Positions 19,997 to 35,901 of a DNA stretch of 64,000 nt are shown one piece after another; position 1 is the first letter of the stretch; each line of letters starts with the position of its first letter. The stretch spans positions 4,143,570-4,207,569 of the forward strand of contig NZ_CP042906.1 of NCBI RefSeq assembly GCF_008728855.1. The letters are read 5' to 3'. Origin of the DNA: Hypericibacter terrae (GTDB lineage: Bacteria > Pseudomonadota > Alphaproteobacteria > Dongiales > Dongiaceae). The notes beneath the pieces were generated by a model. It searched no databases, was not told the DNA's origin, and was given only the letters and a program-made list of their open reading frames with translations. The position numbers and the translations under genes are program-made.

Positions 19997-20218
19997 AGAG
20001 AAACCCCTTATAAGTGTCGTTCCCTCACATGCGAGGGCCGCAGAAAGCCTCCAAACCCTCCAACCCTCCAAGAGCGTTGATCCGGCTTGGCAATCCTCAT
20101 GGATAGTTGTGGAGGGTTGGATAGTTCCGGAAGCGGTCGGGCTGCCGCCCTCGCCCCCGCGCCCTCCGCTCGCCAGGCGTCAGCCCGCGCGACCCTCCAA
20201 CCCTCCACAACTATCCAT
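19956..20218. repeat. Iteron-like 9-mer cluster with a 23-bp inverted repeat (candidate prophage origin)
   Basis: TGGATAGTT occurs on the plus strand at 19956, 19965, 19973, 20100 and 20119 and in inverse at 20209. The variant TGGAGGGTT occurs at 20110 and in inverse at 20054, 20062 and 20199. A perfect 23-bp inverted repeat pairs 20099-20121 with 20196-20218 around a 74-base loop. The cluster lies at the 3' end of the P4-type primase-helicase gene, a place where phage origins can sit. Confidence 0.7.
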
Positions 20219-21821
20219 TTCCATACTCGCCCTCGCTCGACGCCGGCGGCGGCTCGTTGCCCTTGGCCGGCGCCTGCCAGGTCAGCTTGATGTCGAGATA
20301 GGATTTCTTGCCGACGATCTCGCCCTTGATGCCCATGTCGCGCAGCTTCAGCCCGAAGCTGGTCTGGCTGATCGGCTTCATGGCCGATTCCTCGGCCCAG
20401 GCGCAGTAGGTCTTGAACAGCACCGTGGCGTTGATGCGCTCGCCCGGCGCCGCCGCGGTGCAGCTCGTCATGAACTCGCGCACCGTGTCGCTCTCGGAGC
20501 GGTATTCCTCTGTTGTCGCCTTGATCTCGTCGGGCACCGCCAGCCCGTTCTCGAGATAGTCGACCAGCCCCGCCAGCAGCCAGTTGAAGATCCCGGCCGT
20601 CTCCTCGTCGATCAGCTCGTCGGCCAGATGCGGATTCGGCGCCGGCCCGTTGACGCCGTCGAAGGTCACGCCCCACAGCACCAGCAGCAGCCGGCGCCAG
20701 ATGCCGTTGTCCTGGCCGCGCACGATCGGCTTCACATTGGCCGAGAGGATCAGCTTGAAGCAGGGCGTGAACTCGAACAGCCCCTCGAACAGGTGCCGCG
20801 CCAGGATCTTCTCGCCGCCGGTCGCGGTCTTGATCACCGATTCCGACAGCCGCGCCCCATGCTCGGGCTCGCTCGCCACCAGCAGCCGCGCGCCCGGCAG
20901 CCGCGCCAAGTCGGGCGAGGCGGCGTCCGCGCGCCGCTCGGCATAGAGGAAGGTCTCGATCCCGACCGTCAGCGTGTAATTGCCCAGCACATGCTGCAGC
21001 ACCTTCAGGAACACGCTCTTGCCGTTGGCGCCGAGCCCGTAGAACAGCACCACCTTCTGCTCGCGCGTCAGCCCGGTGAGGCAATAGCCGGCCCAGCGCT
21101 GGATGAAGCGGCGCACCGCCACGATCGGCAGCGCCTCCTCCATGAACTTTTCCCATTTGGGGCATTTCGCCTTGGGATCCCAGACCACCGGCGACAGATG
21201 CGTGATCAGGTCGTCGCGCGCATGGTCGCGCTTCGCGACCTCGAGCCCGAGCTCGACCGTGCCGTCGGCGATCGAGAACAGCCAGGGCACGTCGTCGAGC
21301 GCCGTCGGCTTGATGCCGAGATAGGGGGCGGCCTCCGACAGCATGCCGCGCAGCTTGTTGTGGTTGCCCGACGCGATGGCGAACTTGTGATGCGCCTCGG
21401 CCCGGTCGAGCAGCGCCTCCTGTTTCGCCGCGACGGTCTCATGCTCGGCGCGCTCGGCGAAGGTCCGCGCCTCCTCCATGATCGCATCGGCCGTGGCATG
21501 GGCCTTCTTCACGATCTCATGCCCGGGATCCTTCGAGGTGCCGGATCGCTCCCAGCATTGCCCGTTCCAGACGAACCAGCCCGCCTGGTCGACGAAGCGC
21601 ACGTCGTCGCCATGGCGCCGCCGCAGCCGCTGCCCGTTGCCGACATCGTTGCGCGGCAGCTCCTCGATCGGCTTGCGGTCGCCGCCGAACAGATCGCCAT
21701 CCGCCGGCGGCCCGGCCAGCGACGCCAGGCGCGCGGCATTCTTCTCGGCGCGCGCCGTCGATTTTGCCTTCGCTCGCGAGGCCTTCTCGTCGAGCGGCTT
21801 GGTCTTTGGTGGTTCGGTCAT
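20211..21821 (-). CDS. P4-type phage DNA primase-helicase
   Basis: 536 aa from the ATG at 21821, which overlaps the upstream stop (ATGA). A D5-like N-terminal region (VPWLFSIADGTVELGLE, PKWEKFMEEALP) is followed by a superfamily 3 helicase with Walker A GLGANGKS (262-269), LLVASEPEHGARLSESVIKT and ILSANVKPIVRGQDNGIWRR. It unwinds and primes phage DNA at the origin. No archaeal-type primase or zinc domain precedes it in the same chain, so priming may involve another gene. Confidence 0.9.
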   Translation of the reverse strand: MTEPPKTKPLDEKASRAKAKSTARAEKNAARLASLAGPPADGDLFGGDRKPIEELPRNDVGNGQRLRRRHGDDVRFVDQAGWFVWNGQCWERSGTSKDPGHEIVKKAHATADAIMEEARTFAERAEHETVAAKQEALLDRAEAHHKFAIASGNHNKLRGMLSEAAPYLGIKPTALDDVPWLFSIADGTVELGLEVAKRDHARDDLITHLSPVVWDPKAKCPKWEKFMEEALPIVAVRRFIQRWAGYCLTGLTREQKVVLFYGLGANGKSVFLKVLQHVLGNYTLTVGIETFLYAERRADAASPDLARLPGARLLVASEPEHGARLSESVIKTATGGEKILARHLFEGLFEFTPCFKLILSANVKPIVRGQDNGIWRRLLLVLWGVTFDGVNGPAPNPHLADELIDEETAGIFNWLLAGLVDYLENGLAVPDEIKATTEEYRSESDTVREFMTSCTAAAPGERINATVLFKTYCAWAEESAMKPISQTSFGLKLRDMGIKGEIVGKKSYLDIKLTWQAPAKGNEPPPASSEGEYGNG

Positions 21822-22573
21822 GCCGCCTCGGCGTGGTCGACGATCTCGATCACCGGCGCCGGCGGGCAATGCGCCGCATGGCGCGCCCGCGCCGCCGCCT
21901 TCTGCCGCCGCGCGATCTCGAGCCCCTGCGCCTCGTCGGCGCAGACCAGGCTGCAATGCAGCAGCAGCGCCTGCGCGTCGGGATGCTCCCAGTCCATGAC
22001 CCAGACCGGCCACAGCGCCTGGCGCGGCATGCCGAGGCCCCAATCGAGCGGCGAGCCGCCCTGGGCCAGCCAGTCTATCGGCGTCGGGCAGAGCCGCACG
22101 CGCCAGGGCGCGTCGTCGGGGGTCCGGTGCCACGGATCGAAATGGACGCCCAGCATCGACAGTGGGCCGCCGCGGATTGCGACCTGCGCCGGATCCTCGG
22201 CGTCGATCAGCAGCATGTCCCAGGCCCGCAAGGCTCGGCCGGCCTCCCAGCAGAGCAGCGGCACCGTAATGCACAGCGCCCCGTCCTCGCGATCGGTGAC
22301 CGGCTCCCAGCAGCCGCCGCGCTCGGCGCGATAGCGGCCCAGCCCGGGATAGACGCCGTTCCGGAAGCGATAACCCTCGCCCAGCGCGGCCCGAAGCCGC
22401 GCCAGCGCCGCCGGATGCTCATGGGCCCGCATCGCCGCCTCATAGGCCTCGCGCGTCAGCCCATGCGCCCCGGCGCCGGCGACGAAGGCGCGGTCGATCT
22501 TGTCGGAGGCGTAGGCGGCGATATCGACCGGCGGCTCGGCCAGGTCGGAATCGTCAAGGTCCAAATCGCTCAT
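21818..22573 (-). CDS. Hypothetical phage protein upstream of the helicase
   Basis: 251 aa. An acidic start (MSDLDLDDSDLAEPPVD) is followed by a helical part and a Trp-rich core (WRVRLCPTPIDWLAQGG, PVWVMDWEHPDAQALLLHC). No Toprim or primase motif is evident. Coupled by ATGA overlaps to both the helicase and the triple-HTH gene, it is likely a replication accessory protein; that is inference from context only. Confidence 0.65.
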   Translation of the reverse strand: MSDLDLDDSDLAEPPVDIAAYASDKIDRAFVAGAGAHGLTREAYEAAMRAHEHPAALARLRAALGEGYRFRNGVYPGLGRYRAERGGCWEPVTDREDGALCITVPLLCWEAGRALRAWDMLLIDAEDPAQVAIRGGPLSMLGVHFDPWHRTPDDAPWRVRLCPTPIDWLAQGGSPLDWGLGMPRQALWPVWVMDWEHPDAQALLLHCSLVCADEAQGLEIARRQKAAARARHAAHCPPAPVIEIVDHAEAA

Positions 22574-23139
22574 GCCGCCTTCCCCGCCATCAATCGCGCC
22601 CGATCCGGTGCCACCATCGCCGCTGCATCGGCGCGCACCGTCGCCAGCAGCACCTTCGGCTTCGGAATTCGGCTTCTTCGCCCCAGCCCCAGCTTCCGCA
22701 GCCGCCAGCGGATCGAGGCTTGGCTGCGCCCGAGCTCGGCGGCGAGCGCGCGCGTCTTCAGCCCTGTCCGTGCCAACACGCGCAGCCGCGCATCGTCGGC
22801 CGGCAGATAGGCCCGCTCATCGAAGCGGATCCCCCGCACCACGGCCCGGCTATGCACAGCGGAGGCCGAGATCCCGAGACGCCGCGCTGTGTCTTCCATC
22901 GTCACGCCCGAGGCCGCCCATTCGCGCACCTGGGCCACGATCGCGGGGGTCCATCGGAAGTAGCCCCGCTTCACCCGCTTCAGCCCGAGCCGGAGGCATT
23001 TGCCGCGCACGGCCGAACGCGACGCCCCCAGGCGCCGCGCGATCGCCGGCGCCCCGAGCCCCTCGGCCACCAGACGACGCAGCTCGGCCTCGCGCGCCGG
23101 CGTCCAGATCGAGGGAGGTTTCGGGCCGCCAGGATTCAT
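22570..23139 (-). CDS. Protein with three GcrA-like helix-turn-helix repeats
   Basis: 189 aa from the ATG at 23139 (ATGA overlap). Three tandem modules resemble the N-terminal helix-turn-helix of GcrA: IWTPAREAELRRLVAEG...GLGAPAIARRLG, FRWTPAIVAQVREWAASG...TMEDTARRLG and ADDARLRVLARTGLKTRALA...AELG, each ending in a short basic R-x-x-x-x-G-L/I segment. A basic tail follows. It probably binds DNA. Single-module phage GcrA homologues are common; three in series is unusual to my knowledge. Confidence 0.72.
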   Translation of the reverse strand: MNPGGPKPPSIWTPAREAELRRLVAEGLGAPAIARRLGASRSAVRGKCLRLGLKRVKRGYFRWTPAIVAQVREWAASGVTMEDTARRLGISASAVHSRAVVRGIRFDERAYLPADDARLRVLARTGLKTRALAAELGRSQASIRWRLRKLGLGRRSRIPKPKVLLATVRADAAAMVAPDRARLMAGKAA

Positions 23140-23552
23140 GCCGCCGCCCCTGTCCGCCGCCTGCGATGCAATTGAGTCCGGATCGCTGCCTCGGTTCGCC
23201 GCAGGACCACGCCCATTCGCTCGGTCGGCCAATCTGCATCGCCCATGAGATCGAGCGCGTTGAGCTCGACCGCGCCCCATTCACTGCGAAGTCCCAGCCA
23301 CCCATGGCCGCGCCCGGGTCCGGCCGAGCGAATTGCCTCGGTGGGGTCGCAAGGCCGTTGCAGCGAGGCGGGTTGCCTCTCGTCTTGTTTCACGTGGAAA
23401 GTTGCGGCTGGCCTCTGACCGCGCCAGCCTCCCTGCCAGATCAGCGCCAGCGGCTCTTCATGACGATCGCCATAGGGATTGGCGGCGCGAGTTTTTCCCT
23501 CGAGGCGCGCCACGACGCCCCGAAGCCAGGCGAGATCCGCCGGCGCGCTCAC
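23136..23552 (-). CDS. Hypothetical phage protein
   Basis: 138 aa with a helical N-terminus (PADLAWLRGVVARLEGKTRA) and a basic C-terminus (RTEAAIRTQLHRRRRTGAAA). Family not recognised. ATGA overlaps on both sides place it firmly in the early operon. Confidence 0.62.
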   Translation of the reverse strand: MSAPADLAWLRGVVARLEGKTRAANPYGDRHEEPLALIWQGGWRGQRPAATFHVKQDERQPASLQRPCDPTEAIRSAGPGRGHGWLGLRSEWGAVELNALDLMGDADWPTERMGVVLRRTEAAIRTQLHRRRRTGAAA

Positions 23553-23848
23553 GACGCCGTCCCCTCGGCCGCACCGCCCGGCGCCTGCCAGGGCAAGCCC
23601 CAGCGCTCGAGGGCGCCCGACCGCTTCAGCCGCTCGATCGACTGGCAGATCGCCAGCCGGTGCGGGTGGGACGGATAGAGCCGCGCGAGCGGCTCCTCGG
23701 GCAGCGCGCCGGCCCGCGCCAGGATGTCATAGAGCCGTTCCGTCGAGAGCGCCCGCTCGGCCGTCTCGATCGAGAACAGCACCGCGCGGTCGAGCTCGGC
23801 TTCGGTCAGGACCGCCTGTCCCCCGGAGCCTTGGCGAAGGGGGATCAT
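23549..23848 (-). CDS. Hypothetical phage protein with repeat-encoded N-terminus
   Basis: 99 aa. The first dozen residues (MIPLRQGSGGQA) come from a dispersed DNA element also found at 24430 and 24915. The remainder (LTEAELDRAVLFSIETAERA, LPWQAPGGAA) is helical, with a short winged-helix-like look. The ATG overlaps the upstream TGA of the GcrA-like gene. Confidence 0.62.
   Translation of the reverse strand: MIPLRQGSGGQAVLTEAELDRAVLFSIETAERALSTERLYDILARAGALPEEPLARLYPSHPHRLAICQSIERLKRSGALERWGLPWQAPGGAAEGTAS
23815..23848 (-). repeat. Protein-embedded repeat (GCCTTGGCGAAGG core), copy 1
   Basis: Plus-strand core GCCTTGGCGAAGG ends just before the start codon on the minus strand and is translated as LRQGSGGQA in the downstream gene. 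Confidence 0.75.
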
Positions 23849-24426
23849 GCCGCTTTCGCCTCCGGATCGTACCGCTCGAGCGAGGCCAGCCCGCGCCCGC
23901 GCGCGGCCGTCTCGTGCTCGGCGCAATAGACATGCCCGAGCTCGGTGCCGGCGCAGCAGAAGCGCAGCGTGCCCTCGCGCAGGTCGCCCTGGGGCCAGCG
24001 GCAGTCGCGCGGGCCCGCCTCGATCAGCGGGCGCCAGCGCCCCCGGCCCTCCACCAGCGCCGCCGGCATCGGCTTCGGCGCCTCGGCCCGCACGGGGATC
24101 GGCGCGCGCGGCAAGGGCGGCGGCGAGGTCGGACCGTTCCACGCCGCATCCGGATCGCGGTCCGGTGGCGGGATCATCCCCCTATGCCCTTCGGGATCCG
24201 GGGGACATGGCTTGGGCGCGGCGCGCGGCGGAATCACTCCCGCCGCCGGCGCGCGGATGATCGGCGAAGGCCGCGACGCCAATCCCATGCGGTGCGCCTT
24301 GCCGATGACCTGGTTGCGCGTCACGCCCATGGTCGCGGCGATCTGCGAGGCCGTGTATCGCTGCCCCCAGAGCCGGCGCAGCAGCTCCATGCGCGCCTCG
24401 GTCCACAGCTCGCTTTCGTTGCCCAT
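23845..24426 (-). CDS. gcrA: GcrA-family transcription regulator (phage-borne)
   Basis: 193 aa. The N-terminus (LWTEARMELLRRLWGQRYTA, then SQIAATMGVTRNQVIGKAHR-MGL) is the GcrA DNA-binding helix-turn-helix. After a Pro-rich linker, the C-terminus has C-R-W-P-Q-G-D and FCCAGTELGHVYCAEH, the cysteine-rich sigma70-contacting part of GcrA. In Caulobacter GcrA activates promoters marked by N6-methyladenine. An adenine methyltransferase gene lies 0.5 kb upstream in the same operon. The start at 24426 follows a dispersed repeat. Confidence 0.87.
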   Translation of the reverse strand: MGNESELWTEARMELLRRLWGQRYTASQIAATMGVTRNQVIGKAHRMGLASRPSPIIRAPAAGVIPPRAAPKPCPPDPEGHRGMIPPPDRDPDAAWNGPTSPPPLPRAPIPVRAEAPKPMPAALVEGRGRWRPLIEAGPRDCRWPQGDLREGTLRFCCAGTELGHVYCAEHETAARGRGLASLERYDPEAKAA

Positions 24427-24429
24427 GCG

Positions 24430-24470
24430 AATCCCCTCCTTCGCCAAGGCTTCGGAGGGCGGGCCCTCCG
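24430..24470 (+). repeat. Protein-embedded repeat, copy 2 (inverted)
   Basis: Contains CCTTCGCCAAGGC, the inverse of the core at 23815 and 24915, followed by CGGAGGGCGGGCCCTCCGG, which is itself palindromic. It lies in the leader of the GcrA-like gene. Confidence 0.75.
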
Positions 24471-24490
24471 GAGCATAATCCCTTATGCGT

Positions 24491-24949
24491 CTATCGCGAC
24501 GAGAGCGCGCCGGCCGAGCTGCGGCGGCGCGTGAAATGCTCCAGCGGCTTGCGGCCCTTGTGCGACGCGGCCAAATCCGGCATCGCCGGCGGCATCGCCA
24601 CGCGCGGCCGCGCCCCGCCCTCGGGCTCGACCCAGCCGTCGCGCCGCAGCGCGACATAGGCCAGATGCCCCGAAGGCCCGCGCCGCTGGAACAGCGCCAC
24701 TGCGCGCATCATCTGCAGCCGCATGAAGAACCCCAGCAGCCCGTCGCCCTGCTCATGGATCGAGGCCGCGCTGTCCCAATAAACCAGCAGCCCGCCCGGC
24801 GGCGTCGCCTCGAGCTTGTGGATCCAGTCGGTCAGCGCTGGCGTGACGCCACTCGCCTCGATCTCGGCGCGCAGGGCGGCCGACAACGGCACGATGCCGG
24901 GGCCGATCGAGAGGGCCTGCCCTCCGAAGCCTTGGCGAAGGAGGGTCAT
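24491..24949 (-). CDS. Hypothetical phage protein between methyltransferase and GcrA
   Basis: 152 aa beginning MTLLRQGFGGQAL, the first residues being encoded by a dispersed repeat. The core (LTDWIHKLEATPPGGLLVYW, FFMRLQMMRAVALFQRRGPS) is mixed alpha/beta and ends in a basic tail. Family not recognised. The ATG overlaps the methyltransferase stop. Confidence 0.62.
   Translation of the reverse strand: MTLLRQGFGGQALSIGPGIVPLSAALRAEIEASGVTPALTDWIHKLEATPPGGLLVYWDSAASIHEQGDGLLGFFMRLQMMRAVALFQRRGPSGHLAYVALRRDGWVEPEGGARPRVAMPPAMPDLAASHKGRKPLEHFTRRRSSAGALSSR
24915..24949 (-). repeat. Protein-embedded repeat, copy 3
   Basis: Core GCCTTGGCGAAGG flanked by CTCC and AGGAGGG; translated in the downstream gene as LRQGFGGQA immediately after the start codon. 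Confidence 0.78.
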
Positions 24950-25548
24950 GCGGCCTGCTCCCCGAACTTCCCGACCTGGTTGCCCCAGGCGTCCCAGCCC
25001 TCGCGGCGCGCCCGCGCGAACATCTCGAGATAGGGCCCGTCATAGAGCCGCTCGATGCGCTGATATTGCTCGTCGGGCTTGCGGCTATGCTCGCGCAGCG
25101 GCGCCAGGATCAATTGCTCGACATCGCGTGACCCCGGCTTGACCTTCGGCGCGCCCCGCGAGGCCCGCAGGCAGAACTCGCTGTTGCCGCGCGTGCCATA
25201 GCCAAGGCCCATGAACAACTTGTCGAGATCGGCCCAGAGCGTCGCCGCCGATCGGTTCTGCTTCACCCAGACGAAGCCGCAGGTCTTGTATGTGAAGCCC
25301 CAGGCTTCGATGACCCGCAGGGCGTCGGGCAGATGCGGCCAGCAGCCCCACATCAACAGCGTGCAGTCGTCCGCCGCGAGATCCGTGACCGGCAATGCCA
25401 TGATCTCCGGTGTGGCCATGGTGTCGTAATGCTGCGACGCGCCCTTGCCCTGGCCCCGGTGCGACCGTGTCTCGAAACGCCAGGGTGGGTCCGCAAGGAT
25501 GACGCGATAGCGATGCCGGGCGTGGCCGGCAAAGGGATCCACCGTCAT
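24946..25548 (-). CDS. MT-A70 family DNA N6-adenine methyltransferase
   Basis: 200 aa. The catalytic DPPW lies at residues 20-23 (VILADPPWRFETRS), followed by the helix-strand pattern TLLMWGCWPHLPDALRVIEA, YKTCGFVWVK and GTRGNSEFCLRASRG. MT-A70 enzymes in phages methylate adenine in DNA, often for protection from restriction; the target is not predictable here. It is in one operon with a GcrA-like regulator, which makes an epigenetic link possible. Confidence 0.9.
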   Translation of the reverse strand: MTVDPFAGHARHRYRVILADPPWRFETRSHRGQGKGASQHYDTMATPEIMALPVTDLAADDCTLLMWGCWPHLPDALRVIEAWGFTYKTCGFVWVKQNRSAATLWADLDKLFMGLGYGTRGNSEFCLRASRGAPKVKPGSRDVEQLILAPLREHSRKPDEQYQRIERLYDGPYLEMFARARREGWDAWGNQVGKFGEQAA

Positions 25549-25787
25549 CGCCCCACCCCGAACGCCTGATCCTCCAGCGACCGCGCCGCGAGGCGCAGCA
25601 GCCAGGCCGCCCGCTCGGGCGGCAGGCCGTTCATCAGCAGCATGAAGCCGCCTTCTTCCGAGACGCCGACGGCGATCAGCTGCGCGAAGTCGAGCGCGAT
25701 CGCGTCATCGATCACGGCGTCGGGCTGGCGCTTCGCCGGCTTCGGATCGCCGACGCGCACGCCGCGGAAGATCGGCTCGACGTCCAT
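25545..25787 (-). CDS. Small hypothetical phage protein
   Basis: 80 aa from the ATG at 25787. AIALDFAQLIAVGVSEEGGF and ERAAWLLRLAARSLEDQAFG suggest a small alpha/beta domain. It is coupled to the methyltransferase by a four-base overlap, so it is probably the first gene of that sub-operon. Family not recognised. Confidence 0.6.
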   Translation of the reverse strand: MDVEPIFRGVRVGDPKPAKRQPDAVIDDAIALDFAQLIAVGVSEEGGFMLLMNGLPPERAAWLLRLAARSLEDQAFGVGR

Positions 25788-26136
25788 CAGCCTGCCCCCC
25801 CCGGCGCCCCAAAAGAGGCCCCGCTCTCGCGAGCGGGGCCAGTCTCGAACAGGGAGGCCGCAGTTGTGAGACGCTGCGTCGCCGTCATCGCGCCCAGGCG
25901 GGGGACGCCCACGCGATCTCGTGAAAAGGATCCGCCGGCGGGCTTCTGCCGCCACCCGCCGGCGTCGTCCCGCGACTGGCGATGCGCTCGGCTGCCGCGG
26001 GAAGAGGAAAGAGAAAACGCCGGCGACGTCTTGAACGGGACTCGGCGCGAGCCCGGAGCGGACTGCTCTCCGTCGCCGGCGTTGATGCGCGCCCGGGGTT
26101 GGATCCCGCAGCGCGCATGGGAATGGTGGTGAACTC
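25788..26136 (-). ncRNA. Structured non-coding interval with three GC-rich hairpins
   Basis: This 349-base interval has no convincing gene. On the minus strand it can form hairpins at 26071-26016 (13-bp arms AACGCCGGCGACG, followed by TTTTCTCTTTCC), 25964-25933 (10-bp arms CGCCGGCGGG) and 25840-25817. The first has a U-rich tail like an intrinsic terminator with a 42-base loop. A leader RNA, attenuator or small phage RNA is inferred. Confidence 0.45.
25817..25840 (-). terminator. Strong palindrome, possible terminator or attenuator
   Basis: Perfect 10-bp stem GGCCCCGCTC with a 4-base loop. On the minus strand TCTTTTGG follows, a weak U stretch. It is about 30 bases upstream of the small gene that precedes the methyltransferase. 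Confidence 0.5.
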
Positions 26137-26328
26137 TCATGGCGCCATCGCCTCGCGCGCGAGCTTGATGGCGCGTTCATGAGAAGCGTCGAGCGCGCCG
26201 GATGCTGCCCACTCGGCCTCGATCTCGCGCCGCACCACGTCGGCGCCGAGCAGCCAGCCGGCGATGAAGCCGACGACCACCGCGAAGATCAGCAGCAGCA
26301 CCAGCCACAGGACCGGAACCTCGATCAT
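26137..26328 (-). CDS. Small phage membrane protein
   Basis: 63 aa. Residues 5-27 (PVLWLVLLLIFAVVVGFIAG) form one strong transmembrane segment; the rest is a charged helix (RREIEAEWAASGALDASHER). The ATG overlaps the upstream stop. Function unknown; its place in an early operon rather than the lysis region argues against a holin. Confidence 0.68.
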   Translation of the reverse strand: MIEVPVLWLVLLLIFAVVVGFIAGWLLGADVVRREIEAEWAASGALDASHERAIKLAREAMAP

Positions 26329-26897
26329 GATGCGGCCTCTTCCTGCTCGTCCCGGATCTCGACCAGATGCGCGCGCGCCGTCACCAGCGCCGCCGCCACG
26401 TCGTCGATCTCCTTCACCATCGCGCCCGCCTCGCCGCGCGAGATCGAGCCGTCGCGCAGCGCCTCGCCATAGACCCGGAACAGCTCGGCCGTCTCCTGCC
26501 CGATCGCCGCGAGATCGACCGCGGCCGCGCCGTCCTCGCCCTGCGGCATCGTCAGCAGCAGCGCGCCCGCCTCGAGCGCCATGAAGGTCGTCACCAGTGG
26601 GCGGCCGAGCGCCGCTTCCCAGGTCCGGATCTGGTCGATGGTCGGGAACGAGTCGGCCTCGGCCGGATCGGTGAAGCGCGCGACCTGGGTGCGCGAGCGG
26701 CCGATCCAATCGCCAGCACGCTCCAGCCCGCCGAGCTGCGCCACCGTCTCGGCCAGCACCGACTTGAGCGAGCCCGCGGGCCTGGGCTTCTGGAACCGCA
26801 TCGGCTGGGCCGGACGGCGGGATGCGGCGCCGGCGGTTCCCGTGGCCACCAGCCGGGGAACCTGCAACCGTAGCGGCGATGACGCACGATCCTTCAT
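26325..26897 (-). CDS. CII-like phage regulatory protein
   Basis: 190 aa from the ATG at 26897 (ATGA overlap). SLKSVLAETVAQLGGLERAG, DWIGRSRTQVARFTDPAEAD and FPTIDQIRTWEAALGRPLVT form a degenerate helix-turn-helix pattern I recall from alphaproteobacterial prophage proteins of the CII type. The C-terminal half is a helical domain (DDVAAALVTARAHLVEIRDE). Likely a regulator of lysogeny or replication. The family call is moderate. Confidence 0.6.
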   Translation of the reverse strand: MKDRASSPLRLQVPRLVATGTAGAASRRPAQPMRFQKPRPAGSLKSVLAETVAQLGGLERAGDWIGRSRTQVARFTDPAEADSFPTIDQIRTWEAALGRPLVTTFMALEAGALLLTMPQGEDGAAAVDLAAIGQETAELFRVYGEALRDGSISRGEAGAMVKEIDDVAAALVTARAHLVEIRDEQEEAAS

Positions 26898-27091
26898 GCC
26901 AACCCCTCCCCGCACCAGGCGCCATGCTCGGTTTCGTCGGTTCCGGCGATGACCGCGAGCAGCAGCGCCAATTCATGGTCACGGGCGCGGCGACGCATCG
27001 TCTCCGAAGCGAGGGGCATGGGCTTGCAGCCGAACGAATCGAGCGGCTTGCCCTCCAAATCCAGATCACGGAACTCCTGGGCGCAGGTCAT
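26894..27091 (-). CDS. Small hypothetical phage protein
   Basis: 65 aa, with three Cys and a short hydrophobic helix (HELALLLAVIAGTDETEHGA). ATGA overlaps with both neighbours. Family not recognised. Confidence 0.58.
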   Translation of the reverse strand: MTCAQEFRDLDLEGKPLDSFGCKPMPLASETMRRRARDHELALLLAVIAGTDETEHGAWCGEGLA

Positions 27092-27351
27092 GCCGCCGCT
27101 TCCTCCCGCGGATAGAGATCGGGCCGCAGCTCATGGCGCGACACCCCAGTGACCTTCTCGATATCGAGCACCCGCTCGGCGGTGGCGACCCGCTCGGCGC
27201 GGTTGATCCAGTCCCAGATCAGGGCCTGGCTCACGGCGGGCTTGTGCGGGGCCAGCTCGTTCAACGCCCGCGCCAGCTTCGCCTGGCCGCCCGCGGCTTC
27301 CACCGCGCGTTGCAGGGCTTCTTTCATGGAGGGAGCGCCGGAAGGGTTCAT
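27088..27351 (-). CDS. Cro/YdaS-like helix-turn-helix protein
   Basis: 87 aa from the ATG at 27351. MKEALQRAVEAAGGQAKLAR, then KPAVSQALIWDWINRAERVA and LDIEKVTGVSRHELRPDLYP is the YdaS/Cro pattern. It is the first gene of the leftward early operon and is divergent from the repressor, so a Cro-like lytic switch role is inferred. The longer start at 27387 would lie inside the operator and upstream of the predicted -10 and is rejected. The chosen ATG follows the -10 by nine bases, suggesting a leaderless mRNA. Confidence 0.82.
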   Translation of the reverse strand: MNPSGAPSMKEALQRAVEAAGGQAKLARALNELAPHKPAVSQALIWDWINRAERVATAERVLDIEKVTGVSRHELRPDLYPREEAAA

Positions 27352-27360
27352 GGCGCCGAG

Positions 27361-27430
27361 AATATAAACTTTCTTATCGGACGTCAATAAGAACGTTTAT
27401 CGGATATTGCGATAAGACTTTTTATAGAAT
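27361..27430. promoter_or_regulatory. Divergent early promoter region with 23-bp operator
   Basis: Operator arms TTCTTATCG (27371-27379) and CAATAAGAA (27385-27393) flank a 5-base spacer. Read leftward, TTGACG, a 15-base spacer and TATATT (27366-27361) form a promoter whose -35 lies in the operator. A related imperfect site (TTATCG at 27397, CGATAA at 27410) lies beside the rightward -10 TATAGAAT (27423-27430), which is eight bases before the repressor ATG. Repressor binding here would block the early operon and may autoregulate. Confidence 0.8.
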
Positions 27431-27436
27431 TGGGTC

Positions 27437-28126
27437 ATGAGCAAATTTGCCACGCGTCTCAAGGCATTACGCGTCGAGTTCGGATTGTCGCAGAAGCGGC
27501 TGGCCGAGATCCTGGGCGTCAAGCAGCCCTCGATCACCCAGGCGGAAAAGGGCAAGAGCCTCGAGCCGCGCTTCGTGATCGACGCCGCCCGCCATTTCGG
27601 CGTGCGGCCGGAATGGCTGCGTGGCGACGATGATGGCCCCCGCGAGGCCGAGGCCCCGACCGCCAGCGTTTCCAGCATCGCCGTCATCGGCCATGTGCAG
27701 GCCGGCGAGTGGCGCGCCGCCTATGTCTGGGACCGCGATCAGTGGTATCCGATCGCCATCCCGCCGGACCGGCGTTACCCGCGCGTCGAGCGTCTGGCGC
27801 TCGAGGTGCGCGGCGATTCGATGAACAAGCTCTATCCGCCGGGTTCGATCCTGGTCGCCGTGCGCTATGCGGACATCGGCAAGCGGCCGGCCGCCGGCGA
27901 GCGCGTCATCTGCCTGCGCCACAACGTCACCGACCAGGTCGAGGCGACCGTCAAGGAGCTCGAACTCGAAAAGGGCGTGCTGAGCCTGGTGGCGCGCACC
28001 ACCAACCCGCGCCGCTACCCGCCGATTCGCATCGACGGCGGCAAGACCGCGCCGCTGACGCTGCAGGAGTCCGGCGACGAGATCGAGATCTTCGCGCGCG
28101 TCACGGGCGCCTACTGCATCGAGTAA
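27437..28126 (+). CDS. LexA-like (S24) prophage repressor
   Basis: 229 aa. An N-terminal helix-turn-helix (MSKFATRLKALRVEFGLSQK, GVKQPSITQAEKG) binds operators. The C-terminal S24 peptidase domain has a probable Ala89-Gly90 cleavage site, catalytic Ser128 in VRGDSMNKLYPPGS and Lys173 in EATVKELEL. It maintains lysogeny and should self-cleave on RecA activation. No Shine-Dalgarno precedes the ATG, which lies eight bases after a -10 box, so a leaderless transcript is likely. Confidence 0.93.
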   Translation: MSKFATRLKALRVEFGLSQKRLAEILGVKQPSITQAEKGKSLEPRFVIDAARHFGVRPEWLRGDDDGPREAEAPTASVSSIAVIGHVQAGEWRAAYVWDRDQWYPIAIPPDRRYPRVERLALEVRGDSMNKLYPPGSILVAVRYADIGKRPAAGERVICLRHNVTDQVEATVKELELEKGVLSLVARTTNPRRYPPIRIDGGKTAPLTLQESGDEIEIFARVTGAYCIE

Positions 28127-34431: not shown

Positions 34432-34709
34432 AGCCCCCGCCCAACTGGCCCGCCGGCGTCACCCCGCTCCGCATGGACAAGGCCTGCGCCGCCTATTTCG
34501 TCGGGCTCACCGTCAGCGAGTTCGAGCGCCAGGTTGCCGACGGCCGCCTGCCGCCGCCGGAGCGGATCCGCAATGTCGACCGCTGGCGCACCAGCGCCCT
34601 GCGCCAGGCGGTTGATCCCGCCCGCTCGCCGGAGCAGGATAATCGCAGCGACGAGGAACTCCTGGCGGGGCTGGACCATGGCGACGATCGTCAGACTGCG
34701 CGGCATTAA
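34428..34709 (+). CDS. Excisionase/AlpA-like DNA-binding protein
   Basis: 93 aa. MDKACAAYFVGLTVSEFERQ, VADGRLPPPERIRNVDRWRT looks like a winged helix-turn-helix of the AlpA/excisionase type. It overlaps the integrase start by 32 bases, the usual place for a recombination directionality factor. No functional proof from sequence. Confidence 0.68.
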   Translation: MKPPPNWPAGVTPLRMDKACAAYFVGLTVSEFERQVADGRLPPPERIRNVDRWRTSALRQAVDPARSPEQDNRSDEELLAGLDHGDDRQTARH

Positions 34710-35796
34710 GAAGGTCCGGTCCAAGGGCCATGTCTATTACTACCACCGCGCCACCGGCGAGCGGCTCCAGGCTGAGCCCGGCACCGCCGCCTTCGTCGCC
34801 GAGGTCGCCGCGCTCGAGCGCCGGCCCGAGGGCGTGCCGGTCGGCCAGCAGCCCCAGGCCCGGATCCTCGGCAACCTGATCGCCGCCTATCGCGGCAGCC
34901 CCGAATTCGCGCGCCTCGCCGCCTCGACCCGCGAGGATTACCAGCATGTCTTCGACTATGTGAAGCCGCTGGAGGGCGTCGCCATCCCGCGCTTCACCGC
35001 GCCCTTTCTCTACAAGATGCGCGACAAGGCCTTCGCCCGGCACAAGCGTCGCTTCGCGAACTATGTCGTGCAGGTGATCCGGCTGCTGTTCGCCTGGGGC
35101 ATCCCGCGCGGTTGGCTCAAGGCCAACCCCGCGCGCGACGTGCCGCTGATCGAGCGCCCCAGGGACACACCCAAGGCCAACCGCGCCTGGAGCATAGCCG
35201 AGTATGACGCCATGGTCGGGCGCGCCACGGGCGGCCTGCGGATCGCGATCATGCTCGGCTTCTGGGCCGGCCTGACCGAGGGCGACATCGTCCGCCTGCC
35301 GCGCGCCGGCGCCTACGATCGCATCGCCGGCTTCATCGACTATCGGCGCCGCAAGACCGGCGTCGAGGCCTCGATCCATGTCGCCGGCGAGCTGCGCGCC
35401 GCGATCGAGCAGGAGCTCGCCCGCACGCTGGGGCCCAAGGCCAAGGTCACGCCGGCGACGCTGGTCTGCAACCGCTGGAATCGCCCCTTCACGGAATCCG
35501 GGATCCGCTCGAGCTTCGCCAAGCTGCGCGCGCCGCTGCTCGCCGAGGGCAAGGTGAAGCCGGGCCTGACGATCCACGGCCTGCGCCACTCGATCTCGCG
35601 CGATGTGATCGACGCCGGCGGCAGCGTCGAGGAAGCCGCCGCGGTCAACGCCCAGACCACCGACGAGATGGGCAACCACTACAGCCGCGAACGCAATCGC
35701 CAGCGCCTCGCGAAGAAGGCCGTCGGGCGCATCGAGAAAGAACGGAAGCGGGCCAGACTTGGAAAACCGTTTGGAAAACCGCGTCAGACGGGCTGA
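34678..35796 (+). CDS. int: Tyrosine recombinase (prophage integrase)
   Basis: 372 aa from the ATG at 34678. An N-terminal arm domain, core-binding helices (STREDYQHVFDYVKPLEGVA) and a catalytic domain with Lys226, His300-x-x-Arg303 (IHGLRHS) and nucleophile Tyr335 (MGNHYSRE). The first catalytic Arg is expected in the box that here reads FWAGLTEGDIVRL; Thr200 occupies the usual Arg position. It ends 29 bases before the tRNA-Phe 3' end, its probable attachment site. Confidence 0.92.
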   Translation: MATIVRLRGIKKVRSKGHVYYYHRATGERLQAEPGTAAFVAEVAALERRPEGVPVGQQPQARILGNLIAAYRGSPEFARLAASTREDYQHVFDYVKPLEGVAIPRFTAPFLYKMRDKAFARHKRRFANYVVQVIRLLFAWGIPRGWLKANPARDVPLIERPRDTPKANRAWSIAEYDAMVGRATGGLRIAIMLGFWAGLTEGDIVRLPRAGAYDRIAGFIDYRRRKTGVEASIHVAGELRAAIEQELARTLGPKAKVTPATLVCNRWNRPFTESGIRSSFAKLRAPLLAEGKVKPGLTIHGLRHSISRDVIDAGGSVEEAAAVNAQTTDEMGNHYSRERNRQRLAKKAVGRIEKERKRARLGKPFGKPRQTG

Positions 35797-35825: not shown

Positions 35826-35901
35826 TGGTGCCCAGGGACGGAATTGAACCGCCGACACGGGGATTTTCAGTCCCCTGCTCTACCAACTGAGCTACCTGGG
35901 C
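35826..35901 (-). tRNA. tRNA-Phe (GAA), prophage attachment site
   Basis: 76 bases including the encoded CCA. Acceptor stem GCCCAGG/CCTGGGC, D arm AGCTCAGTTGGTAGAGC, anticodon loop CTGAAAA (anticodon GAA) and T arm GGTTCAATTCC are all present. Its 3' end faces the integrase, so the att core should be in the 3' half. Confidence 0.97.

What the first reader, a model, noticed from the sequence alone, without database searches (positions are those of the whole stretch)
23845..25548. Phage early operon pairs a GcrA homologue with an adenine methyltransferase
A full-length GcrA-like regulator (HTH plus Cys-rich C-terminus), an unknown 152-aa protein and an MT-A70 N6-adenine methyltransferase lie in one minus-strand operon. 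In Caulobacter GcrA acts at promoters carrying N6-methyladenine made by CcrM. A phage carrying both parts could re-programme host cell-cycle transcription or control its own promoters by methylation state. The link between these two genes is my inference.
Basis: partly seen in the sequence, partly recalled or inferred. Interest (0 to 1): 0.66.

Follow-up and report, generated by a model that had tools for sequence, protein, structure and literature searches.

The report
Phage-borne GcrA beside adenine methyltransferase
A virus dormant in a bacterial genome carries its own version of a bacterial cell-cycle switch protein near a methylating enzyme; some related viruses show the same neighbours, which hints at a takeover of the host's cell cycle, but the two genes need not work as a pair.

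Summary
In detail: a prophage carries, on the minus strand, an MT-A70 methyltransferase (24946-25548), an orphan 152-aa protein and a 193-aa GcrA-family protein (23845-24426) with both GcrA domains. The proposed link, MT-A70 writes a mark that phage GcrA reads, is only partly supported. Of 57 de-replicated GcrA-bearing viral clusters (window included) 14 have MT-A70 in the flanks, 13 within 1.5 kb. But the excess over terminase-anchored phages is not significant (14/49 v. 5/41, p = 0.07), and MT-A70 loci of the window's class rarely hold GcrA (0/57; 3/28). The MT-A70 lacks the motif of the phage enzymes shown to methylate GANTC, and the host has its own CcrM-type methylase and GcrA. Most likely phage GcrA is a sigma70 cofactor reading host-made GANTC methylation, and MT-A70 has a separate job, such as protecting DNA. 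A wider pattern: 36 of 57 clusters also hold GapR, DnaA-like, MT-A70 or CcrM-like genes; GapR and DnaA-like exceed two of three control sets (families picked after the fact). Boldest reading not excluded: GcrA targets the MT-A70 enzyme. Also seen: a palindromic repeat at the gene junctions and an sRNA-like element upstream.

The parts
23845..24426 (-). GcrA-family protein, 193 aa: HTH (TRNQVIGKAHRMGL) and Cys-rich C-terminus (CRWPQGD...FC...YCAEH)
   Evidence: Pfam PF07750 82.6 bits; PDB 7ye1/5yiu/5yix matches; below NF050816 equivalog cut-off
24946..25548 (-). MT-A70-family methyltransferase, 200 aa, ADPPW motif; substrate unknown
   Evidence: PF05063 81.2 bits, PHROG_359 E 9.4e-78, PDB 7f4r and METTL3 relatives; only PF05063 match in the host genome
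24491..24949 (-). 152-aa orphan protein; first residues (MTLLRQGFGGQA) encoded by the palindromic repeat
   Evidence: no family match; no relative among loci fetched by then
25545..25787 (-). 80-aa protein whose stop overlaps the MT-A70 start; no relative found
23549..23848 (-). 99-aa protein following gcrA (ATGA overlap); N-terminus encoded by the repeat; no relative found
23136..23552 (-). 138-aa protein between the 99-aa protein and the multi-HTH protein; no NCBIfam match, no relative found
22570..23280 (-). protein with a GcrA-type HTH and further HTH-like stretches, no Cys-rich domain seen (true start probably inside the frame)
   Evidence: PF07750 36.5 bits on profile 3-48 only; phrog_323 E 1.4e-33
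23820..23839 (-). palindromic repeat copy 3 (core), at the gcrA stop / next start
24439..24458 (+). palindromic repeat copy 2 (core), inverted, between the 152-aa ORF and gcrA
24921..24940 (-). palindromic repeat copy 1 (core), at the MT-A70 stop / 152-aa start
25811..25932 (-). sRNA-like element ending in a terminator-like hairpin, upstream of the block
   Evidence: sub-threshold Rfam ar7 22.7 bits and SorX 21.2 bits; terminator-like site 25840-25817
27437..28126 (+). CI-like repressor, divergent from the minus-strand early genes
   Evidence: phrog_4 E 7.2e-29
26325..26915 (-). CII-like activator
   Evidence: phrog_101 E 2.2e-17
20211..22274 (-). D5-type primase of the replication module
   Evidence: PF08706, phrog_1156
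34534..35796 (+). integrase beside tRNA-Phe (prophage edge)
   Evidence: phrog_1 E 2.8e-21; tRNA-Phe 35826-35901

Best explanation
The prophage carries a phage-borne version of GcrA that binds host sigma70 and recruits RNA polymerase to promoters with GANTC sites methylated by the host's own CcrM, so that phage and/or replication genes are expressed at, or regardless of, the proper host cell-cycle stage. MT-A70 is a separate early gene that methylates adenines, most likely in phage or host DNA, for protection. The two lie close together because alphaproteobacterial phages gather host-takeover genes (GcrA, GapR, DnaA-like proteins, adenine methylases) in one early region. Shown: gene families and domains, the host's own GcrA and PF01555 methylase, recurrence and closeness of the genes in some other phages. 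Inferred: sigma70 binding, GANTC reading, that the PF01555 gene is CcrM, the role of MT-A70.
For: Both GcrA domains retained. The host genome has one PF01555 methylase, which I judge to be CcrM (883263-883928), and its own GcrA (1667551-1667988). Phage GcrAs mostly lie apart from host GcrAs on a tree: 5 label changes, 26.4 when shuffled (weak support). 36 of 57 GcrA-bearing viral clusters hold at least one of GapR (14), DnaA-like (14), MT-A70 (14), CcrM-like (9) in the flanks; GapR 14/57 v. 4/73 (p = 0.002) and DnaA-like 14/57 v. 3/73 (p = 0.001) in MT-A70 loci without GcrA from alphaproteobacterial genomes. 250 of 350 phage records with an MT-A70 relative are named after Vibrio, Klebsiella, Escherichia or Salmonella. 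Neighbours of MT-A70 include BglII-type (4) and MunI-type (1) restriction endonucleases among 119 proteins scanned, which points to DNA methylation. Precedents for phage GcrA: phiCbK-like phages (PMC3556154, passages) and Atu_ph08 (PMC6630229, passages).
Against: No binding, methylation or expression data. When both genes are present they are unusually close (12 of 13 within 1.5 kb of flank-limited cases; 12 of 15 with two distant ones), more than loose co-residence needs, although other early families crowd there too. The GapR and DnaA-like excess is weaker against viral MT-A70 loci without GcrA (4/34 each, not tested), CcrM-like genes show no excess (9/57 v. 8/73, p = 0.44), and the two families were chosen after seeing the neighbour list. 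A published scan found no positional asymmetry of GcrA sites in phage genomes (PMC9437464, passages). GANTC sites here show only a marginal intergenic excess (10 of 69, p = 0.04, own gene list).
Confidence: 0.5

Rival explanations
1. One reading: MT-A70 is a CcrM-like writer of GANTC (or another) adenine methylation and phage GcrA is its reader, a two-gene epigenetic switch.
For: Closeness in both gene orders (11 and 11 of 22 pairs scored), with MT-A70 presence scattered over the GcrA tree (16 changes, 18.5 shuffled, 30 of 200 shuffles as low). Dam-type methylases (PF05869) in 6 of 50 GcrA-bearing records against 0 of 42 terminase-anchored ones (without the window p = 0.03; MT-A70 or Dam 16/49 v. 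5/41, p = 0.026; uncorrected).
Against: MT-A70 is common without GcrA; MT-A70 excess not significant; CcrM-like excess absent; GANTC-specific phage enzymes tested so far have NPPW/F/Y (PMC5537653, passages); the host has its own CcrM-type methylase; no GANTC at the early promoter.
Confidence: 0.2
2. The MT-A70 is a bare catalytic domain that works as a heteromer; the GcrA-like HTH protein nearby is its targeting subunit, bringing the enzyme to GcrA-bound DNA.
For: A prophage MT-A70 of E. coli forms a 1:1 complex with the putative nucleic-acid-binding (winged HTH) protein PNB-2 of the neighbouring gene, which sets its substrate (PMC10810198, passages). Two viral MT-A70 loci have beside the enzyme weak GcrA-type HTH matches covering only the HTH part of the profile (L010 E 9.8e-4, L040 E 4.1e-4).
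Against: GcrA is only 4 of 119 immediate neighbours of MT-A70; most MT-A70 loci examined have no GcrA; here a 152-aa orphan lies between the two genes; the L010 and L040 matches are barely significant.
Confidence: 0.12
3. The MT-A70 methylates RNA (for example 16S rRNA), and its nearness to GcrA is unrelated.
For: The one characterised prophage MT-A70 I read about is an rRNA methyltransferase (PMC10810198, passages); solved relatives include METTL3; Escherichia phage relatives are about 42% identical.
Against: Restriction endonucleases beside some MT-A70 genes point to DNA; the preference of this clade is untested.
Confidence: 0.13

Closest known systems
GcrA of Caulobacter crescentus (PF07750; sigma70 cofactor at methylated promoters)
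   Same: HTH DNA-binding domain, linker, Cys-rich sigma-interacting domain by sequence (domain roles from PMC7403470, passages)
   Different: Phage-borne, 47% or 43% identical to its own host's GcrA, below the equivalog cut-off; TRNQVIGKAHRMGL where Caulobacter has TRNAVIGKVHRLGL
Phage GcrA homologues of phiCbK-like phages (gp222) and Atu_ph08 (gp5)
   Same: Phage-carried GcrA homologue proposed to raise host replication functions (PMC3556154, PMC6630229, passages). Atu_ph08 also has a cytosine-specific DNA methylase at gp7, close to GcrA gp5
   Different: The passages read name no MT-A70 beside GcrA; here the carrier is a temperate prophage with a D5-type primase
GANTC-specific (CcrM-mimic) methylases of phiLM21-type and Paracoccus prophages
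   Same: Phage adenine methylase gene near the replication module (PMC5537653, passages)
   Different: Those carry NPPW/F/Y; this one is MT-A70 with DPPW, and the prophage record has no PF05869 match
M.EcoPA8orf6770P, prophage MT-A70 with an HTH partner
   Same: MT-A70 with DPPW beside a gene for a putative HTH protein (PMC10810198, passages)
   Different: Partner PNB-2 is not described as GcrA; substrate shown there is 16S rRNA; identity to that protein itself was not measured here

Membership tests
GcrA family (PF07750) | Profile match over most of the family | tested here: met
   82.6 bits, cut-off 26.9, positions 3-145/155
GcrA family (PF07750) | DNA-binding and sigma-interacting domains as in solved GcrA | tested here: met
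   7ye1 E 1.8e-15, 5yiu E 1.8e-8, 5yix E 2.6e-4; by sequence only, no structure predicted
GcrA equivalog (NF050816) | Score over NCBI's equivalog cut-off | tested here: not met
   75.6 bits against 280
GcrA family (PF07750) | Binds sigma70 and m6A GANTC promoters | not testable with these tools
   needs protein and DNA binding assays
MT-A70 family (PF05063) | Profile match and DPPW catalytic motif | tested here: met
   81.2 bits, profile 1-172/172; ADPPW at residues 19-23
MT-A70 family (PF05063) | Substrate (DNA or RNA) and sequence specificity | not testable with these tools
   needs methylome or in vitro assay
Phage GANTC-specific methylases | NPPW/F/Y motif | tested here: not met
   motif is DPPW; no PF05869 match in the prophage record; motif rule from PMC5537653 passages; that these enzymes belong to PF05869 is my recall
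CcrM (PF01555) | N6_N4_Mtase domain | tested here: not met
   only PF01555 match in the genome at E 0.001 is at 883263, outside the prophage
Obligate GcrA/MT-A70 two-gene system | Pair kept together across phages | tested here: not met
   0/57, 3/80 (3/28 alphaproteobacterial), 10/80 from the MT-A70 side; 14/57 from the GcrA side
Obligate GcrA/MT-A70 two-gene system | MT-A70 more frequent with GcrA than in a sample not chosen for GcrA | tested here: inconclusive
   14/49 v. 5/41, p = 0.072

The most novel reading that the evidence does not exclude
Phage GcrA homologues are targeting subunits of bare MT-A70 methyltransferases: the GcrA HTH binds GANTC-type sites and steers adenine methylation to chosen promoters, so a sigma70 cofactor was turned into the specificity part of an epigenetic writer, within a wider phage early region that copies parts of the alphaproteobacterial cell-cycle circuit (GcrA, GapR, DnaA-like, adenine methylase).
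Probability: 0.1. Interest if true: 0.8.

Novelty: new variant of a known kind. Interest (0 to 1): 0.42.

Why it matters
In the papers read, phage GcrA and phage CcrM mimics are reported as separate cases. The survey here suggests that phages which carry GcrA often carry other alphaproteobacterial cell-cycle or nucleoid genes nearby (36 of 57 clusters). If these act on the host, phage takeover of the bacterial cell-cycle circuit becomes testable with defined gene sets. For this window, it also warns that an MT-A70 close to GcrA need not be a CcrM-like writer.

Tried and rejected
Rejected: 'MT-A70 and GcrA are an obligate pair', by counts from the MT-A70 side. Rejected: 'the early promoter is a GANTC/GcrA promoter'; no GANTC between 27036 and 27815. 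Not favoured: a recent capture of the host's gene; the prophage GcrA does not group with its own host's GcrA, though no starred fork holds it and few forks are supported. Not useful: a primase-anchored sample, 21 loci, in which only the window's own locus has GcrA or MT-A70. A single-sequence GcrA search found only the same prophage in IMG/VR and one match covering 22% in named phages. Folding of the three repeat copies as RNA gave z-scores of -0.8 to -1.2. Of 17 held genomes of the host's order only this one has MT-A70. The Rfam matches are well below the gathering scores. A general rule 'MT-A70 has an HTH neighbour' was not seen: HTH-type families are a handful of the 119 neighbours.

Limits of the counts. 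That the window's class is Alphaproteobacteria is inferred: no call names it, but contigs of G183, G351, G242, G032 and G325 have the lengths of named records (one is Zavarzinia aquatilis, L341; the others are L300-L303, titled only 'Proteobacteria', which I count as alphaproteobacterial for this reason). The other alphaproteobacterial loci were picked by me from record titles. Of 60 non-window PF05063 matches I fetched 57 (two fragments and one with stops left out); several flanks end at contig ends. The 80 GcrA-bearing viral loci are the best 80 of 326, ranked by likeness to this GcrA, and give 57 clusters. The terminase sample is the 42 records of at least 15 kb out of 114 loci. The window is in both samples and was taken out for the Fisher tests, but not from the 57. 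Closeness: whole-record search adds two MT-A70 genes to the 13 non-window cases, about 12 kb away (G447) and at the opposite contig end (G475). Two antisense families that outrank GapR I took for shadow frames. The neighbour scan used mechanical ORF picks and 119 of 140 near and 88 of 141 distant frames (those up to 450 aa), and shows 25 of 50 and 25 of 79 families. No test is corrected for the number of tests. On checking, the controls (78 clusters, some genomes twice) were replaced (73 clusters), and interest was lowered from 0.45 to 0.42 because the viral MT-A70 control (GapR 4/34, DnaA-like 4/34, any of GapR/DnaA-like/CcrM-like 11/34 against 27/57) shows a weaker contrast.
Full report
What is there. 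The window lies in a one-contig 5.89-Mb genome, alphaproteobacterial by inference (see Tried and rejected). About the left 36 kb are a prophage: tape measure, head-tail adaptor, capsid, portal and terminase on the minus strand, a CI-like repressor on the plus strand at 27437, and an integrase at 34534-35796 beside tRNA-Phe. The minus-strand early genes include a YdaS/repressor-type gene (27088-27387), a CII-like gene (26325-26915), an 80-aa protein, MT-A70, a 152-aa orphan, GcrA, a 99-aa and a 138-aa orphan, a multi-HTH protein and a D5-type primase.

GcrA. The 193-aa protein matches PF07750 over nearly the whole profile and aligns with solved Caulobacter GcrA in the HTH and in the sigma-interacting domain. 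It falls far below NCBI's equivalog cut-off, and the host has its own gene elsewhere. On a tree of 89 sequences phage and host GcrAs are largely apart (5 label changes, 26.4 when shuffled) and the prophage copy does not join its host's; few branches are well supported.

MT-A70. The 200-aa enzyme has the ADPPW motif and a full PF05063 match. Relatives are in 350 phage records: Vibrio 188, Klebsiella 25, Escherichia 23, Salmonella 14, Rhodobacter 13 and others by first word of the name. Among 119 proteins picked next to MT-A70 genes of fetched loci, the commonest recognised families are BglII-type endonuclease, N6_N4 methylase and GcrA, four each; among 88 proteins 2-5 kb away GcrA is not one of the families with two or more members. 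Endonuclease neighbours suggest that part of the family methylates DNA. A prophage member in E. coli, however, methylates 16S rRNA together with the putative HTH protein of the neighbouring gene (PMC10810198, passages). The substrate here is open.

Do they belong together? From the MT-A70 side: GcrA-type matches in the flanks of 10 of 80 viral loci (window included, two of them weak), 0 of 57 loci from 385 genomes of the window's class, and 3 of 80 loci from named genomes, all three among 28 taken as alphaproteobacterial. From the GcrA side: of 57 viral clusters MT-A70 is in 14, CcrM-like in 9, either in 22 (window included). Whole-record searches gave MT-A70 in 15 of 50 and Dam-type in 6 of 50, against 6 of 42 and 0 of 42 in terminase-anchored records; GcrA was in 5 of those 42, and both GcrA and MT-A70 only in the window's own record. 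Without the window: MT-A70 14/49 v. 5/41, p = 0.072; v. 5/37 without GcrA, p = 0.12; contigs of at least 15 kb, 12/45, p = 0.11; Dam-type 6/49 v. 0/41, p = 0.03; either 16/49 v. 5/41, p = 0.026; uncorrected. When both occur they are close: 12 of 13 within 1.5 kb, 3.25 expected for random placement in the flanks, at most 10 in 20,000 draws; two more distant cases outside the flanks make it 12 of 15. Early genes crowd in general, so part of this is expected. GcrA comes first in 11 and MT-A70 first in 11 of 22 pairs, and MT-A70 presence is scattered on the GcrA tree (16 changes, 18.5 shuffled): repeated association rather than one inherited cassette.

A wider pattern. After shadow frames, the most frequent neighbour family of phage GcrA is GapR (L229 example: PF10073 43.8 bits), and another holds DnaA N- and C-terminal domains (L234). 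Controls: in MT-A70 loci without GcrA from alphaproteobacterial genomes GapR 4 of 73 (p = 0.002), DnaA-like 3 of 73 (p = 0.001), CcrM-like 8 of 73 (p = 0.44, no excess); in terminase loci without GcrA 2, 0 and 8 of 92, less fair because they centre on late genes; in viral MT-A70 loci without GcrA 4, 4 and 4 of 34, a weaker contrast that I did not test. The two families were chosen after the fact. L227 holds all five genes. This window has GcrA and MT-A70 but no GapR or DnaA-like match.

Literature as searched. Phage GcrA is known (PMC3556154, PMC6630229; the latter phage also has a cytosine-specific methylase two genes from GcrA), phage CcrM mimics are known (PMC5537653), the discussion of a CtrA paper names both as separate cases (PMC9437464), and a 2025 paper calls its phage GapR the first (PMC12185513), though a 2021 jumbo-phage paper also holds the word GapR (PMC7824862, search listing only). 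All others in this paragraph were read as passages. Searches for GcrA with MT-A70, and for GapR with GcrA and phage, returned no paper in the held library; most subscription journals are not held.

Mechanism. The most economical reading is that phage GcrA, keeping both domains, acts as a sigma70 cofactor at GANTC promoters methylated by the host's CcrM-type enzyme, and that MT-A70 does a separate job. GANTC sites are depleted to a similar degree in the prophage part and in the rest of the window (70 v. 183 and 61 v. 149 expected). Ten of 69 lie between genes, a marginal excess (p = 0.04 with my own gene list), two of them (18674, 18740) in the gap upstream of the terminase genes; none lies near the early promoter. 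This would fit GcrA acting on late genes, but is not evidence of it. A published analysis saw no asymmetry of GcrA sites in phage genomes (PMC9437464).

Sequence oddities at the block. A palindromic element with core CTTCGCCAAGGCT(T/C)CGG(A/G)GG occurs three times in 1.1 kb, at the gene junctions, and seven times in the whole genome with up to three mismatches (control pattern once). Two copies start right after an ATGA stop/start overlap, so that the next protein begins with LRQG(F/S)GGQA; these two copies differ at two stem pairs, both kept paired by changes on both sides (sequences). Two of ten other phage contigs with the element (L286, L289) show the same ATGA context. Upstream of the block, 25811-25932 resembles the alphaproteobacterial sRNA families ar7 and SorX below threshold and ends in a terminator-like hairpin.

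Verdict. The epigenetic-switch reading is possible but not favoured. The clustering of phage GcrA with other cell-cycle and nucleoid genes is the more interesting lead and needs an unbiased census.

Noticed in passing
23820-23839, 24439-24458, 24921-24940: Palindromic repeat (core CTTCGCCAAGGCTTCGGAGG) three times at gene junctions of the MT-A70/GcrA block; two copies sit directly after ATGA stop/start overlaps and encode the next protein's N-terminus; seven matches in the genome with up to 3 mismatches; same ATGA context in L286 and L289, 2 of 10 other phage contigs.
   Followed up: partly
25811-25932 (-): sRNA-like element: sub-threshold matches to Rfam ar7 and SorX with a CCUCCCUGUU motif and terminator-like hairpin, just upstream of the 80-aa/MT-A70/GcrA block; a similar motif with a hairpin lies just upstream of MT-A70 in L371.
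   Followed up: partly
22570-23280 (-): Protein with a GcrA-type HTH and further HTH-like stretches, without a Cys-rich domain match (PF07750 HTH part, phrog_323).
   Followed up: no
L227 4688-13211; L207-L285 in general: Phage GcrA loci often carry GapR and DnaA-like genes within a few kb; L227 has DnaA-like, GapR, MT-A70, GcrA and CcrM-like matches on one strand.
   Followed up: partly
18674 and 18740: Two GANTC sites 66 bp apart in the gap upstream of the terminase genes, a possible GcrA/CcrM-type promoter region.
   Followed up: no
MT-A70 neighbours in fetched loci: BglII-type (4) and MunI-type (1) restriction endonucleases directly beside MT-A70 genes among 119 neighbours, suggesting that some MT-A70 members serve as type II methylases.
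   Followed up: no
L031 8570-9706: A second, longer MT-A70 frame directly follows the first one in a phage with adjacent GcrA.
   Followed up: no
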